From the NCBI GenBank assembly GCA_946480495.1, contig CAMLKO010000097.1:1-5253 (forward strand): a DNA stretch of 5,253 nucleotides, in the 5' to 3' direction. Source of the stretch: an uncultured Caulobacteraceae bacterium. Lineage in GTDB: Bacteria > Pseudomonadota > Alphaproteobacteria > Caulobacterales > Caulobacteraceae. Made by a program: the position numbers and the translations under genes. Under the pieces are notes generated by a model, which was given only the letters and a program-made list of their open reading frames with translations, was not told the origin of the DNA and did no database searches. Shown one piece after another: positions 208 to 5,253 of this stretch (the first letter of the stretch is position 1; the number at the start of each line of letters is the position of its first letter).

Positions 208-210
208 GCC

Positions 211-235
211 CTTCCCCCAGCTCGTCTGGGGGAAG
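211..235 (+). terminator. Hairpin just after valS stop (possible 3'-end structure)
   Basis: A perfect 10-bp stem (211-220 with 226-235) with a CTCGT loop begins three bases after the valS stop codon. The stem is strong and G/C-rich, but the following bases are TGGGCC rather than a T-run, so it is not a canonical intrinsic terminator. It is also the outer arm of the larger palindromic repeat. A role in stabilising or ending the valS transcript is plausible and unproven. Confidence 0.35.
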
Positions 236-353
236 TGGGCCGACAGCGCCAGCTGGAGGCTCGATGGGGGAGTACCTCTTCCCTTGAAAACTCCCCCATC
301 GACCTTCGCCGCTTCGCGTCTCAGGCCACTTCCCCCAGACGAGCTGGGGGAAG
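211..353. repeat. 143-bp compound palindromic intergenic repeat
   Basis: The element is a nested inverted repeat. The outer arms, 211-238 and 326-353, are perfect 28-bp reverse complements, and each arm is itself a hairpin (10-bp stem CTTCCCCCAG/CTGGGGGAAG, 5-nt loop). The inner arms, 261-273 (TCGATGGGGGAGT) and 290-302 (ACTCCCCCATCGA), are perfect 13-bp reverse complements around a 16-nt loop. The stretches between them (239-260 and 303-325) are similar in length but have diverged. It can be read as two copies of one roughly 63-nt unit, 211-273 and 290-353, facing each other as in REP/BIME elements. Long palindromic intergenic repeats are known in Caulobacter and other alphaproteobacteria; I infer that this is one of those families. 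No transposase or target-site duplication is seen. It may act in RNA as an mRNA-end or transcription-attenuating structure for valS. Confidence 0.85.
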
Positions 354-364
354 AGCCAAAGCCT

Positions 365-464: not shown

Positions 465-2216
465 ATGACCGACGCCGCCCCCGCTCCGGCGATCCCCTGG
501 CCCGCCATGTCGATCGAGCAGGCTCACGCCCTGATCACCGGCCCCGGTTCTCCGCTTGAGGTCGAGGAGATCGACATCCGCGGCGTTCACACGAAAGTCT
601 GGAAACACCTGCCGCCGACGCTGCGCGAGACCATCGAGGCTGGCCGCGCCTTCGGCGACCGGGTCTTCCTGGTCTATGAGGACGAGCGCATCACCTTCGA
701 GGCCTTCCACCGCGCCGTGGCGGCCTTCGCCAAGGAACTGCAGGCCCGCGGGCTCAAGAAGGGCGACCGCGTCGCGCTGATCATGCGCAACCTGCCCGAA
801 TGGCCGGTGGCCTTCTACGCCGCCGTCACCCTGGGCGCGATCGTCACCCCGCTGAACGCCTGGTGGACTGGGCCGGAGCTGGAATACGGCCTGACCGACT
901 CCGGCTCGAAGTTCGCCATCATGGACGCCGAGCGGCTGGAGCGCCTGCGCGAGCACCTGCACAACTGTCCCGAGCTCGAGCACGTCTACGTCTGCCGCGA
1001 GGCCGAGGAGATCGCCCACCCGAAGATCTCCAAGCTGGAAGACGCCATCGGCGGCCCCAACGACTGGGCCGGCCTGCCCGACAACCCGCTGCCCAAGGCC
1101 GATATCGGGCCGGAAGACGACGCCACCATCTTCTACACCTCCGGCACCACCGGTAAGCCGAAGGGGGCGCTGGCCACCCACCGCAACATCATGACGAACA
1201 TCTTCTCGTCGATGAGCTCGGTGGCGCGGTCATACCTGCGCCGGGGCGAGATGCCGCCCGCGCCCGATCCGGACGGGCCGCAGCGGGCCAGCCTGATCAG
1301 CGTGCCCTTCTTCCACGCCACCGGCTGTTACGCGGTGCTGAACCCCGCCCTGCACACCGGCGCCAAGCTGGTGATGATGTACAAGTGGGACCCGGTCCGC
1401 GCCTTCCAGCTGATCGAGCGCGAGAAGATCACCCAGGCCGGCGGCGTGCCGACCATCGCCTGGCAGCTGATCGAGCATCCGGCCCGCAAGGACTACGACC
1501 TCTCCAGCCTCGAAGCCGTCGCCTACGGCGGCGCGCCCTCGGCGCCGGAGCTGGTGCGCAAGATCCGCGAGACCTGGCCCAATTCCCAGCCCGGCAACGG
1601 CTGGGGCATGACCGAGACCTCGGCCACCGCCACCCACCACATGGCCGAGGACTACGAGCACCGTCCCGACAGCTGCGGCCCGGCCGTGGCGGTCGGCGAA
1701 TGCAAGATCATGACCATCGAGGGCGACCGCGAGCTCCCCGTCGGCGACGTCGGCGAGCTGTGGTTCAAGGGCCCGCAGGTGGTGAAGGGCTACTGGAACA
1801 AGCCGGAAGCCACGGCCCAGACCTTCGTCGACGGCTGGGTCAAGACCGGCGACCTCGCGCGGATGGACGCCGAAGGCTTCGTCTTCATCATCGACCGCGC
1901 CAAGGACATGCTGATCCGCGGCGGCGAGAACATCTACTGCATCGAGGTCGAGAACGTCCTCTACGACCACCCGGCGGTTATGGACGCAGCCCTGGTCGGC
2001 ATCCCGCACAAGACGCTGGGCGAAGAGCCCGCCGCGGTCGTCACCCTCAAGCCCGGCGCCGAGGCCACCGAGCAGGAACTCCGCGCCTTCGTCGCCGAGC
2101 GCCTGGCCGCCTTCAAGGTGCCGGTCCGCGTGGTCTTCTGGCACGAAACCCTGCCGCGCAACGCCAACGGCAAGATCATGAAGAACGAGCTGAAGAAGGT
2201 GTTTGAGACCGTCTGA
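465..2216 (+). CDS. Class I adenylate-forming acyl-CoA ligase (fatty-acid--CoA ligase family)
   Basis: This 583-residue protein should activate a carboxylic acid with ATP to an acyl-adenylate and then transfer it to CoA, in the cytoplasm. All core motifs of the ANL superfamily are present: the phosphate loop YTSGTTGKPKG (224-234), the PFFH gate region (281-284), GWGMTET (379-385), TGDL with ribose-binding D463 (461-464), the hinge DRAKD (477-481) with RGGENIY after it, and catalytic K570 in PRNANGK. The C-terminal lid domain is complete, and the length is normal for medium/long-chain acyl-CoA ligases. The substrate cannot be read from sequence; a fatty acid is likeliest, but aromatic or other acids are possible. 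ATG 465 is preceded by GGGAGAAG (453-460). A second ATG at 507 has less upstream support. The gene probably shares a transcript with tlyA four bases downstream, and may be controlled by the dyad at 365-378. Confidence 0.93.
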   Translation: MTDAAPAPAIPWPAMSIEQAHALITGPGSPLEVEEIDIRGVHTKVWKHLPPTLRETIEAGRAFGDRVFLVYEDERITFEAFHRAVAAFAKELQARGLKKGDRVALIMRNLPEWPVAFYAAVTLGAIVTPLNAWWTGPELEYGLTDSGSKFAIMDAERLERLREHLHNCPELEHVYVCREAEEIAHPKISKLEDAIGGPNDWAGLPDNPLPKADIGPEDDATIFYTSGTTGKPKGALATHRNIMTNIFSSMSSVARSYLRRGEMPPAPDPDGPQRASLISVPFFHATGCYAVLNPALHTGAKLVMMYKWDPVRAFQLIEREKITQAGGVPTIAWQLIEHPARKDYDLSSLEAVAYGGAPSAPELVRKIRETWPNSQPGNGWGMTETSATATHHMAEDYEHRPDSCGPAVAVGECKIMTIEGDRELPVGDVGELWFKGPQVVKGYWNKPEATAQTFVDGWVKTGDLARMDAEGFVFIIDRAKDMLIRGGENIYCIEVENVLYDHPAVMDAALVGIPHKTLGEEPAAVVTLKPGAEATEQELRAFVAERLAAFKVPVRVVFWHETLPRNANGKIMKNELKKVFETV

Positions 2217-2220
2217 CGCC

Positions 2221-2955
2221 GTGAGCCGCAAACGCGCCGACGTCCTGCTGGTCGAGCGGGGCCTCTTCGAGAGCCGCGCGAAAGCCCGCGCCGCCATCGA
2301 GGCGGGCGGCGTCACGGCGGATGGACGGCCCGTCGCCAGGGCCTCCGACCTCGTGGACGAAACCGCCGACCTGACCGCGGAAGCCGCCCACCCGTGGGTC
2401 GGCCGAGGGGCGCTGAAGCTCGCCTACGCGCTGGAGGTCTGGGCGATCCCGGTGGAGGGCAGGGTGGTTCTCGACGTCGGCGCCTCGACCGGCGGCTTCA
2501 CCGAAGTCTGCCTCCACGCCGGCGCGGCGAGGGTCTATGCGGTCGATGTCGGCCGGGGCCAGCTGCACCCCAAGGTCGCCGCCGATCCGCGCGTGATCGA
2601 CCTCTCAGGCGTCGACGCCCGCAGTCTCGACACGACGCTCATCCCCGAGCCGCCGGACCTGATCGTCAGCGACGTCAGCTTCATCAGCCTCGAAAAGGCG
2701 CTGCCCGCCGCGCTCGCGCTGGCAGCCTCAGGCGCCGACCTCGCCTGCCTCGTCAAACCGCAGTTCGAAGTCGGCCGCGAACACGTCGGCAAGGGCGGCG
2801 TGGTGAAGGACGAGGCGGCCCGTGCGAACGCCGTGCGCGACGTCGCCGCCTTCCTCGACCGCTCCGGCTGGACCGTGCGCGGCGAGGCCCAGAGCCCCGT
2901 CACCGGCGGCGACGGGAATGTCGAATTCCTGCTCTGGGCCCAGAAGCGCGGCTAG
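2221..2955 (+). CDS. tlyA: TlyA-type rRNA 2'-O-methyltransferase (hemolysin A family)
   Basis: The 244-residue protein has an N-terminal S4 RNA-binding domain (about 4-50: ADVLLVERGLFESRAKARAA...) and a FtsJ/RrmJ-like Rossmann methyltransferase domain (about 58-240). The SAM-binding motif I is DVGASTGGFT (85-94). The FtsJ-type catalytic tetrad is visible as K66 (GALKL), D151 (SDVSF), K179 (VKPQFE) and E235 (GNVEF), each three residues before the tetrad I recall for mycobacterial TlyA. The family hallmark GREHVGKGGVVKD follows (186-198 region). In Mycobacterium the enzyme 2'-O-methylates cytidines in 16S and/or 23S rRNA, affecting capreomycin sensitivity; the 'hemolysin' label is historical. 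GTG 2221 is chosen because it begins the usual 'MSRKRADVLLVERG' start. An in-frame TTG at 2203 would overlap the upstream gene. No good ribosome-binding site is near either start, so translation is probably coupled to the ligase gene ending at 2216. Confidence 0.93.
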   Translation: MSRKRADVLLVERGLFESRAKARAAIEAGGVTADGRPVARASDLVDETADLTAEAAHPWVGRGALKLAYALEVWAIPVEGRVVLDVGASTGGFTEVCLHAGAARVYAVDVGRGQLHPKVAADPRVIDLSGVDARSLDTTLIPEPPDLIVSDVSFISLEKALPAALALAASGADLACLVKPQFEVGREHVGKGGVVKDEAARANAVRDVAAFLDRSGWTVRGEAQSPVTGGDGNVEFLLWAQKRG

Positions 2956-3143
2956 TGCTTCGTGCCCGTGTGCTTGGGCTTACCCTTGCGCTTGGTCGAC
3001 GCCATCTTCTCCAGCTCCTTCTCGCTCATCGAGCTGGCCATCGACTTCGAAGCGCCCTTCAGCGAGCTCTTCGAGCGTTCGCCGCGCTTGGCGGAAAGGG
3101 CCGCGCCGGCGGCCTGTTGCTGGGCTTGGGACTTGGCGGGCAT
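2952..3143 (-). CDS. Small basic DUF3008-family protein
   Basis: This 63-residue protein begins MPAKSQAQQQAAGAALSAKR and continues with GASKSMASSMSEKELEKMAS before a basic tail (KRKGKPKH). I recognise this as the DUF3008 family of alphaproteobacterial small proteins of unknown function. It has 15 Lys/Arg against 4 acidic residues and no cysteine, signal peptide or membrane segment, so it is likely a soluble, nucleic-acid-tolerant or stress-type protein; that role is inference only. The start is well supported: a perfect AGGAGG (complement of 3152-3157) lies eight bases before the ATG. It is transcribed towards tlyA, and the two stop codons overlap within CTAG (2952-2955), leaving no room for a terminator between them. 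Its upstream side (3144-3288) also carries the promoter element for the sigma factor in the opposite direction. No convincing promoter of its own was identified. Confidence 0.85.
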   Translation of the reverse strand: MPAKSQAQQQAAGAALSAKRGERSKSSLKGASKSMASSMSEKELEKMASTKRKGKPKHTGTKH

Positions 3144-3209
3144 GACGTGCGCCTCCTGTACTGTTCAGACCTCGAGCAGAACGTCCGGACGGCCAAATTG
3201 CTGCAACAC

Positions 3210-3236
3210 TTCCGCTTTGCCGCGCTCGTTCGTCTT
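3210..3236 (+). promoter_or_regulatory. Putative ECF-sigma promoter of the sigma/FecR operon (copy 1 of shared motif)
   Basis: TTCCGCTTTGCC (3210-3221), 7 variable bases, then TTCGTCTT (3229-3236). The same two blocks with identical spacing occur at 4817-4843 before the TonB-receptor gene, in the same orientation. All 20 block positions match while the 7-nt spacer (GCGCTCG versus CCACCCC) differs, and flanking bases do not match. From TTCC to CGTC is 17 bp, like the -35 to -10 distance of ECF promoters, and CGTC/CGTT is a common ECF -10 core. The end of the element is 52 bases before ATG 3289. I infer autoregulation by the encoded sigma factor. Confidence 0.62.
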
Positions 3237-3262
3237 GGACACGGCGGCCTTTACATCGGTGT

Positions 3263-3267
3263 GGAGG
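3263..3267 (+). promoter_or_regulatory. Ribosome-binding-site candidate bearing on the sigma-factor start
   Basis: GGAGG lies six bases before an in-frame TTG (3274) and 21 bases before ATG 3289. If it is the true site, the sigma factor starts at TTG 3274 and gains five residues. The only element directly before ATG 3289 is a weak GGCGGG-like stretch (3279-3284). The sequence alone does not decide between them. Confidence 0.35.
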
Positions 3268-3288
3268 CGCGGCTTGCTGGCGGGCGCG

Positions 3289-3828
3289 ATGTCACGGGCG
3301 GAGGCGGACAAGGTCTGGGACGGGAAAACGGGGGACGGCGCCGGCGCCAACTCCCGCATCGAAAGCCTGTTTCGCGAGCATAACGACACCCTGCTGCGCT
3401 TCCTGCGCGCCCGCCTGCACAGCGAGGCCGACGCCCGCGAGGCCGCCCAGGAGGCCTACGTCCGCCTTCTCCAGCTCGACGACCCGGGCCAGCTCTCCTT
3501 CCTGCGCGCCTACCTGTTCCGCATCGCCGCCAACGTCGCGACCGACCTGCTGCGCCGCCGCACCCTGCAGACCAGGGCCGCGCAGGACACCCTCTTCTTC
3601 GAAAGCGACGCGCCGGCGACCCAGGAGCGCGGCCTGCAGGCCCGCCAGCAGCTGGCCGCGGTCGAGCTGGCGCTGTCGCAACTGCCGCCCAAATGCCGCG
3701 AGGCCTTCCTGCTCAGCCGCCGCGAGGGCTGGGCCAGCGGCCGCATCGCCGCCCATCTGGGCGTTTCCGACCGCATGGTGCGCCTGTACCTCGTCCGCGC
3801 CCTTGAGCACCTGGAGGCCGCGCTATGA
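3289..3828 (+). CDS. FecI-type ECF RNA polymerase sigma factor
   Basis: This protein of 179 residues should direct RNA polymerase to a few promoters, in a surface-signalling circuit with the FecR-like protein and TonB receptor that follow. Region 2 spans about 25-91: LFREHNDTLLRFLRARL (core binding), then AQEAYVRLL and FLRAYLFRIAANVATDLLRRR (regions 2.3-2.4, -10 recognition). A variable linker follows. Region 4 spans about 118-175, with ALSQLPPKCREAFLLSR and a helix-turn-helix, GRIAAHLGVSDRMVRLYLVR (151-170), for -35 recognition. Length is typical of the FecI group. ATG 3289 is the last ordinary start codon before region 2; TTG 3274 and GTG 3259 are in-frame alternatives, and TTG 3274 has the better ribosome-binding site. 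The stop overlaps the next start as ATGA. Substrate specificity of the circuit, iron siderophore or other ligand, cannot be read here, and no obvious Fur box was seen. Confidence 0.92.
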   Translation: MSRAEADKVWDGKTGDGAGANSRIESLFREHNDTLLRFLRARLHSEADAREAAQEAYVRLLQLDDPGQLSFLRAYLFRIAANVATDLLRRRTLQTRAAQDTLFFESDAPATQERGLQARQQLAAVELALSQLPPKCREAFLLSRREGWASGRIAAHLGVSDRMVRLYLVRALEHLEAAL

Positions 3829-4808
3829 GCCCGCGCGCCGCCGACAAGGTCTCGATGGAAGCCCGCGAGTGGTTCGTCCGCCTGCTGGACGACGACGTCT
3901 CCGCCGACGAACTGGCGCTGTGGCAGGCCTGGCTCGCGCGCTCGCCCGCCCACCGCGACGCCTGGGACCGCGTCTCCGACGCCTGGGGCCTGGGCGGGGA
4001 GGGGAGGCCGCAACGCCCCTCCATCGCCGAACTGGCCGCCGACGCCTACGACGGCTCGACGCCCGTCGCCCAATGGCAGGGCAAGCCCCGCCGCGCCTTC
4101 CGCCCCGCGCTGATCGCCGCGAGCCTCGCGGTCGCCGTGCTGGGCGCCTCGGCCGCCGTCTTCGCCCTGCCGGGCGGCGAGGCGCACGCCATCACCACCG
4201 CCCGCGCCGAGCACAAGCAGGCCGCGCTGGCCGACGGCTCGAAGCTGGAGGTCGGCGCCATGACCGGCGTCCAGGTCCGCCTCACCGACGCCCGCCGCGA
4301 GGTGAAGCTCGACCGCGGCGAGGCCTTCTTCCGCGTCGCCGACGATCCGCATCGCTCCTTCGTCGTGAAGACGCCGTTCGGCGCGGTGAAGGGCGCGGGC
4401 GCCGCCTTCAACGTCGACGTCGCCGGCCGCCAGCTCTGCATCACCGTCACCGAGGGCGATGTGGTGGTGCAGCCCTCCGGCCTCTTCACCAAGCCCGTCC
4501 GCGTCGCCGCCGGCCAGCAGATCATCGTCAACTCGTCCGGCTCCGTCGTCGCCGCCGGCTCGCCGGTCACCTGGACGCAGGGCCGCCTCGAATACCGCAA
4601 CACGCCCCTGAGCGTCGTCGTCGCCGACGTGAACCGCTACGCCGACCACCCGATCGTGCTGCACGACCCGTCGCTGGGCGATCTCGAATACACCGGCGCC
4701 GTGCGGCTCGACGCGACGGGCGACTGGGTGAAGGCGCTGCCCGCCGCCTTCCCCCTCGACATTTCGCGCAGCGAGAGCGGGACCATGGTCTTGTCCTCGC
4801 GGCTGTAG
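3825..4808 (+). CDS. FecR-family anti-sigma / sigma regulator, inner-membrane
   Basis: The 327-residue protein has the three FecR parts. Residues 11-54 are the cytoplasmic DUF4880-type domain (AREWFVRLLDDDVSADEL, WQAWLARSPAHRDAWDRV), expected to bind the sigma factor. Residues 93-115 are a single hydrophobic segment (ALIAASLAVAVLGASAAVFA). The periplasmic FecR domain is about 121-215 (ALADGSKLEV, LDRGEAFFRVADDPHRSFVV, TPFGAVKGAGAAFNVDV), followed by a C-terminal STN-like region (about 255-327: LEYRNTPLSVVVADVNRY) that in the family meets the receptor signalling domain. Length is typical. Arginines 89-90 with F92 (RRAF) directly before the membrane segment resemble a twin-arginine export signal. 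ATG 3825 overlaps the sigma stop by four bases and GGAG lies at 3813-3816, so the two genes are translationally coupled and expected in a fixed ratio. Confidence 0.92.
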   Translation: MSPRAADKVSMEAREWFVRLLDDDVSADELALWQAWLARSPAHRDAWDRVSDAWGLGGEGRPQRPSIAELAADAYDGSTPVAQWQGKPRRAFRPALIAASLAVAVLGASAAVFALPGGEAHAITTARAEHKQAALADGSKLEVGAMTGVQVRLTDARREVKLDRGEAFFRVADDPHRSFVVKTPFGAVKGAGAAFNVDVAGRQLCITVTEGDVVVQPSGLFTKPVRVAAGQQIIVNSSGSVVAAGSPVTWTQGRLEYRNTPLSVVVADVNRYADHPIVLHDPSLGDLEYTGAVRLDATGDWVKALPAAFPLDISRSESGTMVLSSRL

Positions 4809-4816
4809 GTTTCGGT

Positions 4817-4843
4817 TTCCGCTTTGCCCCACCCCTTCGTCTT
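4817..4843 (+). promoter_or_regulatory. Putative ECF-sigma promoter of the TonB-receptor gene (copy 2 of shared motif)
   Basis: TTCCGCTTTGCC (4817-4828), 7 variable bases, TTCGTCTT (4836-4843). It repeats exactly the two blocks and spacing found at 3210-3236 before the sigma gene. It begins eight bases after the fecR stop and ends 45 bases before ATG 4889, so it would make a short leader. Its presence indicates that the receptor can be transcribed separately from the sigma/FecR operon, and by the same sigma factor. No intrinsic terminator with a T-run is seen between the two genes. Confidence 0.62.
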
Positions 4844-4888
4844 AGCCCCAGCCAAAGCCGCAATCAGGCGGCCACAGGGGGGAAAGAT

Positions 4889-5253
4889 ATGAAGACCTGG
4901 ACGAGGCTCCTTTTCGGCGCGACCGCGCTGACCAGTATTGCGTTCGCCGCGCCCGCGCTCGCGGCCAGTCTCGACGAGACGGTCAACTTCGAGATCGCGC
5001 CCGGATCGCTCGACGAAGCCCTGATCGCCTACGGCAAGCAGGCGGACATGCAGGTCATCTCCGCCTCGATGGCCGTGCGCGGCAAGCACACCGCCGGCGT
5101 CGAAGGCGCCACGACGCCGCGCGAGGCGCTGGCGATGCTGCTGAAGGACTCGGGCCTCCACTTCGTCGCTTCCGGCGAGAACACCGTGACGGTCACCGCC
5201 GACCCCCAGTCCGGAAGCGCCGCGGGGGACGGCGCTGACGGTACGGTCGCCGC
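4889..5253 (+). CDS. TonB-dependent receptor with N-terminal STN signalling domain (partial)
   Basis: The frame opens at ATG 4889 and runs off the right edge after 121 complete codons. Residues 1-25 form a Sec signal peptide: MKTWTRLL, a hydrophobic core, and cleavage after APALA. Residues about 32-102 match the STN (secretin and TonB N-terminal short) domain: VNFEIAPGSLDEALIAYGKQ, MQVISAS, the GVEGATTPREALAMLLKDSG stretch and FVASGENTVTVT. A Gly/Ala/Asp-rich linker follows, where a TonB box and plug would be expected next. Such receptors take up a ligand across the outer membrane using TonB energy, and the STN domain passes the ligand-bound signal to FecR. Position directly behind sigma and fecR genes makes a FecA-like transducer much more likely than another STN protein such as a secretin, but the barrel is outside the window. 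A G-rich ribosome-binding stretch (GGGGGGAAAG, 4877-4886) precedes the start. Confidence 0.88.
   Translation, partial: MKTWTRLLFGATALTSIAFAAPALAASLDETVNFEIAPGSLDEALIAYGKQADMQVISASMAVRGKHTAGVEGATTPREALAMLLKDSGLHFVASGENTVTVTADPQSGSAAGDGADGTVA

What the first reader, a model, noticed from the sequence alone, without database searches (positions are those of the whole stretch)
3210..4843. Identical bipartite promoter-like element before both the sigma gene and the TonB-receptor gene
TTCCGCTTTGCC-N7-TTCGTCTT is present at 3210-3236 and 4817-4843, same strand, same spacing, 20 of 20 block positions identical, while the spacer and flanks are unrelated. Both copies end 45-52 bases before a start codon in the same direction. 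From the family it is known that FecI-type sigma factors read receptor promoters. The inference is that this is the recognition site of the sigma encoded at 3289-3828, giving positive autoregulation plus receptor induction. In E. coli, fecIR is instead Fur-controlled and not self-activated.
Basis: partly seen in the sequence, partly recalled or inferred. Interest (0 to 1): 0.72.

Follow-up and report, generated by a model that had tools for sequence, protein, structure and literature searches.

The report
Self-activating receptor switch sigma-factor promoter
A DNA element in front of both a sigma-factor gene and the outer-membrane receptor gene beside it is very probably the promoter which that sigma factor reads, so the switch appears to turn up its own production, unlike the textbook FecI switches that it resembles.

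Summary
TTCCGCTTTGCC-N7-TTCGTCTT lies at 3210-3236 and 4817-4843; 200 shuffles gave none. The genes are an ECF sigma factor, a FecR anti-sigma (ATGA overlap) and an STN-domain TonB receptor. The element has ECF-promoter geometry: -35 TTCCG, -10 CGTCTT. Related elements precede the sigma gene in 2 of 3 Caulobacteraceae relatives and in 6 of 6 Emcibacter-type loci; in the Caulobacteraceae they also precede receptors and exported proteins. In two gammaproteobacterial genomes with many paralogues, sigma genes tend to share their own -35 with their own receptor: 22 of 27 loci and 14 of the closest 20, p<=5e-5 each, nearly always in the correct orientation. The trait concentrates in one sigma clade (43 of 64 loci, 3 of 47 outside) and is not seen in 29 more loci, one of them a clade member. 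Support from five other genomes is weak. No transcript was measured. A review lists FecI-like systems among exceptions to ECF autoregulation (PMC8103513, passages).

The parts
3210..3236 (+). Putative ECF promoter of the sigma-fecR operon: -35 TTCCGCTTT 3210-3218, -10 CGTCTT 3231-3236
   Evidence: relatives
3289..3828 (+). FecI-like ECF sigma factor (Sigma70_r2 + Sigma70_r4_2), 179 aa
   Evidence: tree
3825..4808 (+). FecR-like anti-sigma factor (DUF4880 + FecR); its start codon overlaps the sigma stop codon (ATGA)
4817..4843 (+). Second copy of the ECF promoter, in front of the receptor: -35 TTCCGCTTT 4817-4825, -10 CGTCTT 4838-4843
4889..5253 (+). TonB-dependent receptor gene, N-terminal part only (signal-peptide-like start by eye, STN signalling domain by Pfam); runs off the window
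   Evidence: full-length counterparts

Best explanation
The two copies are promoters read by RNA polymerase carrying the FecI-like sigma factor encoded between them. Inferred mechanism: a ligand on the STN receptor signals through FecR and frees the sigma; the sigma then starts transcription at 3210-3236 (its own gene and fecR) and at 4817-4843 (the receptor). This gives positive feedback on sigma, anti-sigma and receptor together, and co-made FecR would reset the switch when the signal ends. Shown here: the sequence pair, its presence in relatives, its orientation and position before start codons, and the private pairing of sigma and receptor promoters in two paralogue-rich genomes. Inferred: that the sigma itself binds, that transcription starts there, the signal, and the feedback strength.
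For: Two perfect copies with expectation 0. No sigma-70-like site in 3100-4900 by a simple consensus scan. Of 18 candidate sites inspected in three Caulobacteraceae genomes, 7 lie just upstream of a gene of the expected kind: sigma (38 and 45 bases), receptors (41 and 54; 17 or 50 for the STN receptor of G100), and exported proteins with DUF5666 (50) and DUF6152-like (69) starts. Site before sigma in 6 of 6 Emcibacter-type loci within two substitutions; these loci are close kin, not independent. A divergent copy lies upstream in 4 of 6 and a weaker one in a fifth; the divergent gene is a receptor in L004, the one tested. Self versus non-self promoter match: G1141, 27 paralogues, 13.33 versus 10.60 of 17; G002, closest 20, 13.15 versus 10.98; both p<=5e-5. 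Wrong-orientation control: 1 and 0 loci at 13 or more, against 22 and 14. Spacer identity of 38 matched pairs is 0.33 against 0.30 expected, so these are not recent duplications. Partner genes match the window receptor's N-terminus (STN region) in 31 of 35 cases with an ORF of 100 aa or more, the window left out.
Against: No site at the sigma gene of G001, 67% identical to the window's. The STN receptor of G033 has no site among the top seven PWM hits of its locus. Eleven of the 18 candidate sites have no clear expected gene. Genome-wide counts at up to 3 mismatches do not exceed the reversed-pattern control by more than two (7 v 11, 15 v 13, 6 v 11 in G001, G033, G100), so specificity rests on position, not number. 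Of seven loci from five further genomes only one (L207) reached 13 of 17, and its partner ORF did not match the STN region, so it is doubtful. The split of G002 into closest 20 and next 20 and the cut at 13 were chosen. The -35 does not track overall sigma identity (Mantel rho -0.03, p 0.63; cross-genome p 0.047), and residue-base covariation misses the max-statistic threshold. No RNA data.
Confidence: 0.82

Rival explanations
1. The element is a promoter of another ECF sigma factor of the same cell (a paralogue or the general stress sigma), which drives both units.
For: CGTC[TA]-type -10s are common to many paralogues, and some -35s resemble each other across clusters.
Against: In one search the two best of 7 sites in G001, 3 of the 5 sites with two mismatches in G033, and 2 of 6 sites in G100 lie at the sigma locus.
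Confidence: 0.1
2. The element is an operator for a transcription factor that co-regulates the two units, not a promoter.
For: Bipartite shared word with fixed spacing. A TetR-like ORF (recognised by eye, not by a family search) lies beyond the receptor in L005 and L008.
Against: Not palindromic; contains the ECF -10 CGT at ECF-like spacing; nearly always points at the gene (22 v 1 and 14 v 0).
Confidence: 0.06
3. Chance, or a recent local duplication of one intergenic stretch.
For: Only two copies in the window.
Against: Zero in 200 shuffles; spacers differ; the same pairing recurs in other genomes with spacer identity near background.
Confidence: 0.01

Closest known systems
E. coli FecI-FecR-FecA cell-surface signalling
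   Same: ECF sigma, FecR anti-sigma, TonB receptor with N-terminal signalling domain; gene order sigma-fecR-receptor
   Different: fecIR is Fur-controlled and not autoregulated (PMC9249621, passages); no shared fecI/fecA promoter found (9 of 17); the window sigma scored 72 bits against a cut-off of 260 for the NCBIfam FecI equivalog
Other FecI-like systems tested for self-activation: HasI, HemI, VreI
   Same: Sigma, anti-sigma and receptor or receptor-like signalling logic
   Different: All three are reported as not autoregulated: HasI in PMC9249621, HemI in PMC12772443, VreI in PMC4971064; passages seen only
Leptospira LIC_12757 with FecR-like LIC_12756
   Same: ECF sigma with FecR-like regulator, reported positively autoregulated (PMC12155086, passages)
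   Different: Per the same paper no putative Leptospira TonB receptor has the N-terminal extension that could signal to FecR; a spirochaete; no shared receptor promoter mentioned in the passages seen
Canonical autoregulated ECF sigma factors
   Same: Positive feedback (inferred here) and -10 CGT
   Different: -35 is TTCC here instead of AAC (hallmarks as stated in PMC8103513, passages)

Membership tests
FecI-FecR-FecA type cell-surface signalling | Sigma factor with only sigma2 and sigma4 regions | tested here: met
   Pfam Sigma70_r2 and Sigma70_r4_2 above cut-off
FecI-FecR-FecA type cell-surface signalling | Adjacent FecR anti-sigma | tested here: met
   Pfam FecR and DUF4880 above cut-off, overlapping ORF
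FecI-FecR-FecA type cell-surface signalling | TonB receptor with STN signalling domain | tested here: met
   STN above cut-off in the window's partial gene; plug and barrel lie beyond the window but are present in relatives
FecI-FecR-FecA type cell-surface signalling | Sigma gene under Fur and not self-activated (usual, not strictly defining) | tested here: inconclusive
   Sequence points the other way: the window upstream region scores 7 of 19 for an E. coli Fur consensus recalled from memory (E. coli fecI 15 of 19), and the sigma gene carries the receptor's element. Neither iron response nor self-activation was measured
FecI proper (NCBIfam NF041727) | Score above the curated cut-off | tested here: not met
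   72.4 against 260 bits
Canonical autoregulated ECF | -35 AAC and -10 CGT | tested here: not met
   CGT present; -35 block is TTCCGCTTT, without AAC
Canonical autoregulated ECF | Transcribes its own operon | not testable with these tools
   Inferred from shared promoter sequence only
ECF243 (group that now holds most FecI-like sigmas) | Score in the ECF group models | not testable with these tools
   The ECF classification models were not available; group named from PMC9249621

The most novel reading that the evidence does not exclude
A scattered clade of FecI-like sigma factors, in Caulobacteraceae, Emcibacter-type alphaproteobacteria and Steroidobacter-like gammaproteobacteria, is self-activating instead of following the FecI rule. 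In genomes carrying dozens of copies each switch has its own private -35 address, so many self-amplifying receptor switches run side by side without cross-talk.
Probability: 0.5. Interest if true: 0.75.

Novelty: new variant of a known kind. Interest (0 to 1): 0.6.

Why it matters
A review treats FecI-like systems as an exception to ECF autoregulation (PMC8103513, passages). A clade that reverses this would make FecI-type target promoters predictable from sequence, because a self-activating sigma reveals its own site. Genomes with about 20 or more members of the clade offer natural sets of sigma-promoter pairs for working out how sigma region 4 reads the -35 and how paralogues avoid cross-talk.

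Tried and rejected
The exact 27-base motif gave nothing in viral contigs and in the first 38 loci; a looser pattern gave nothing in 299 Caulobacteraceae genomes. This shows rarity and left the conservation question to sigma-guided searches. With up to two substitutions, only 6 of the 38 genome loci carry the element.

A PWM made from the first copies was scanned upstream of 29 genes (28 others plus G001): no convincing sites, except perhaps L050 and L049. The self-pairing test on those 28 was negative (p 0.16).

The 29 loci that I had first left out of the pairing test (L002, L011-L038) were added as a late control: 0 of 29 reach 13, p 0.19; 6 of them gave no comparable word pair. L002 is the same locus as clade member L116, which is also negative. 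They were not put in the tree.

A whole-locus self-match with other loci as control was confounded by the motif being shared between related loci and was replaced by region-restricted permutation tests. Words and regions were fixed on G002 and used unchanged on G1141; handling of missing values and the number of permutations changed. The wrong-orientation control covers the reverse strand of the downstream region and the same strand from -420 to -171, somewhat less sequence than the test.

Fur contrast: 0 of 64 clade loci and 5 of 46 outside reach 13 of 19 (1 and 9 at 12 or more). But all outside hits come from the alphaproteobacterial class set (5 of 28); the next 20 G002 paralogues also have 0 of 19. 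So the contrast is confounded with taxon and does not show that the clade lost Fur control.

Overall sigma identity against -35 similarity: no correlation. Residue-base covariation on 34 loci: best z 5.8 against a 95% threshold of 6.2. Recognition-helix residue R165 with -35 position 4 gives Fisher p 0.003, uncorrected and picked after looking: a lead only.

Rows dropped: L207, L125, L178, L180, L188 (doubtful sites) and L005, L008, L009 (near-copies), L004, L005, L008, L009, L207, L203 (identical to L003); L201 is missing from the tree (length filter); L007 was never in the pairing test. The Fisher p of 2e-11 treats related rows as independent and is not a true probability.

My first reading of L043 and L044 used the wrong strand; corrected.

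Full report
WHAT IS THERE. The window carries the end of valS, an acyl-CoA ligase, a TlyA-type methyltransferase, a divergent DUF3008 gene, then sigma factor, FecR and the start of a TonB receptor with STN domain. The bipartite element occurs twice, exactly as reported, and nowhere else with up to three mismatches; 200 shuffles gave none. Copy one lies in the intergenic stretch 3144-3288, copy two in 4809-4888. A simple scan found no sigma-70-like promoter in 3100-4900. No whole genome is held for the window. Its own sigma cluster (P0001) lists one contig of 5,472 bases, so the source is probably a metagenome; two relatives with 79-80% identity are labelled Caulobacteraceae MAGs, while a 93% one is labelled Parcubacteria.

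CLOSE RELATIVES. A sigma match at E<=1e-24 (63-68% identity) exists in 3 of 390 genomes of the family of G001. In G033 the sigma gene is preceded, 45 bases upstream, by TTCCGCTTTGCC-N7-GGCGTCAG, with the 12-base first block unchanged. In G100 both the sigma (38 bases) and the STN receptor (17 bases to the first ATG, 50 to the second) carry TTCC..AACGTCTTA. G001 has no site at its sigma gene, but its two best genome-wide sites lie on the same contig within 2 kb of it. I inspected 18 of the sites found (the six with a fetched locus in each of these three genomes): 7 lie 17-69 bases before a sigma, receptor or exported-protein start, two (L078, L087) look like the motif but have no clear gene, and the rest are unclear or look like chance. 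The DUF6152 match is below Pfam's cut-off. Eleven sites that I picked from the four Caulobacteraceae (two of them without a clear gene) align as TTCC-N17-CGTC, mostly followed by TTAG or a near variant. Genome-wide counts at up to three mismatches are not above the reversed-pattern control in two of these genomes and 15 against 13 in the third, so the evidence is where the best sites lie, not how many there are.

MORE DISTANT ALPHAPROTEOBACTERIA. Six of six closely related Emcibacter-type loci (L004-L009; three labelled Emcibacter, two Alphaproteobacteria, one Sphingomonadales) have TTCCACT[TA]T-N11-NNCGTCTT in front of the sigma gene. Four of six have a second copy within two substitutions pointing the other way, and a fifth a weaker one. 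The divergent gene is a TonB receptor without STN in L004, the one tested, with similar ORFs in the others; an STN receptor follows fecR in L004. The other 32 of the 38 loci lack the element at up to two substitutions.

THE GENERAL TEST. A Steroidobacter MAG (G002) and a gammaproteobacterial MAG (G1141) hold many paralogues of this sigma. For each locus I compared CGT-anchored words (9-base -35, 8-base -10, spacer 10 or 11) from 170 bases upstream of sigma with those after fecR (+1300 to +2000) or divergent upstream (-420 to +10), and contrasted self with non-self pairings. G002, 40 loci: 11.6 versus 10.4 of 17, p<=2e-4. Split afterwards: closest 20 loci, 13.15 versus 10.98, p<=5e-5; next 20 loci, not significant (p 0.33). 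Replicate in G1141, 27 loci: 13.33 versus 10.60, p<=5e-5, with 22 of 27 at 13 or more against 4.8% of non-self pairs. Seven loci from five further genomes: 11.3 versus 10.4, p 0.036, 1 of 7 at 13 or more and that one doubtful. Alphaproteobacterial class set, 28 loci: p 0.16. Remaining 29 loci: 0 at 13 or more, p 0.19. Turning the second region the wrong way leaves 1 of 27 and 0 of 20. At loci with 13 or more the partner site usually sits just after fecR or just upstream on the other strand. Of 43 such loci, 36 gave a partner ORF of at least 100 aa; leaving out the window, 31 of 35 have an N-terminus matching the window receptor's STN region. Pfam finds plug and barrel in 10 of 10 receptors tested and STN in 9 of 10, four of these below the cut-off. 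The -35 differs from cluster to cluster (for example TTCCGCTTT, CCGCCGAAT, CGCAAAAAT, GTCAGTTTT), while CGTC[TA]-type -10s are common; CGT itself was imposed by the test. Spacers match near background (0.33 versus 0.30, 38 pairs). The simplest reader of a cluster-specific element is the cluster's own sigma.

WHERE THE TRAIT LIES. In a quick 113-row tree rooted on E. coli FecI the window, the Caulobacteraceae, the Emcibacter group, 19 of the closest 20 G002 paralogues and the 26 G1141 rows fall in one 65-row clade (SH-aLRT 94). Self-match of 13 or more: 43 of 64 in the clade, 3 of 47 outside. The Fur comparison is inconclusive. Matches of 13 or more of 19 to a Fur consensus recalled from memory: 0 of 64 in the clade, 5 of 46 outside, but all five from one alphaproteobacterial set of 28; the next 20 G002 paralogues also have none in 19. 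E. coli fecI scores 15 and the window 7.

MECHANISM. Shown: sequence identity, presence in relatives, geometry, orientation and paralogue-specific pairing. Inferred: binding by the sigma, transcript starts about 6-8 bases after CGTCTT, release of the sigma from FecR by a ligand-loaded STN receptor (family knowledge), and positive feedback on sigma, FecR and receptor. The ligand is unknown, and nothing here shows that it is iron.

AGAINST WHAT IS KNOWN. A review names FecI-like systems as exceptions to ECF autoregulation (PMC8103513). fecIR and hasI (PMC9249621), hemI (PMC12772443) and vreAIR (PMC4971064) are reported as not autoregulated. Fur boxes or iron control are reported for FecI-like genes of Xanthomonas campestris (PMC1790865) and Pseudomonas syringae (PMC3597554). 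A FecR-linked Leptospira sigma is reported as autoregulated, without a known signalling receptor (PMC12155086). In S. meliloti no FecI promoter motif was found (PMC6180224). Of all these papers I saw passages only. Ten searches of the open-access library listed no paper whose title or abstract start reports a self-activating FecI-type sigma sharing a promoter with an STN receptor. Subscription papers were out of reach, and the current ECF classification paper did not appear in the listings. I file it as a new variant of FecI-type signalling: the parts match, the usual wiring seems not to. On checking I lowered confidence from 0.83 to 0.82 and interest from 0.62 to 0.60, because the Fur contrast and the support from other genomes proved weaker than first written.

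Noticed in passing
window 208-356: Large imperfect inverted repeat (36-nt arms, 92% complementary, 77 nt apart) enclosing a second one (18-nt arms), between valS and the acyl-CoA ligase gene; looks like an intergenic repeat or terminator element.
   Followed up: no
window 2952-3143 (-): DUF3008 small protein gene, divergent from the sigma gene, sharing the 145-bp intergenic region that holds the first promoter copy.
   Followed up: no
window 465-2216: Acyl-CoA ligase whose best NCBIfam hit is steroid-24-oyl-CoA synthetase, well below its cut-off (456 of 750 bits).
   Followed up: no
L083, L079: Predicted sites for the sigma precede small exported proteins with DUF6152-like (below cut-off) and DUF5666 domains in relatives, possible regulon members beside the receptors.
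   Followed up: partly
L047 6645-7037: The fecR following the sigma gene of G001 breaks off after 130 residues; tblastn with a related FecR found no continuation. Truncation or assembly fault not resolved; G001 is also the relative without a site at its sigma gene.
   Followed up: partly
G002, G1141: First-look searches gave 204 and 182 sigma candidates (candidates, not all confirmed), a very high number for genomes of 8.5 and 4.0 Mb as held.
   Followed up: no
L130, L131, L136, L137, L141: Outside the clade several Steroidobacter FecI-like genes have recurring upstream words (ACGCTAAC, AGGG) that may be a different shared control element.
   Followed up: no
protein P0002: A 93% identical sigma is labelled Parcubacteria group bacterium, probably a binning error.
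   Followed up: no
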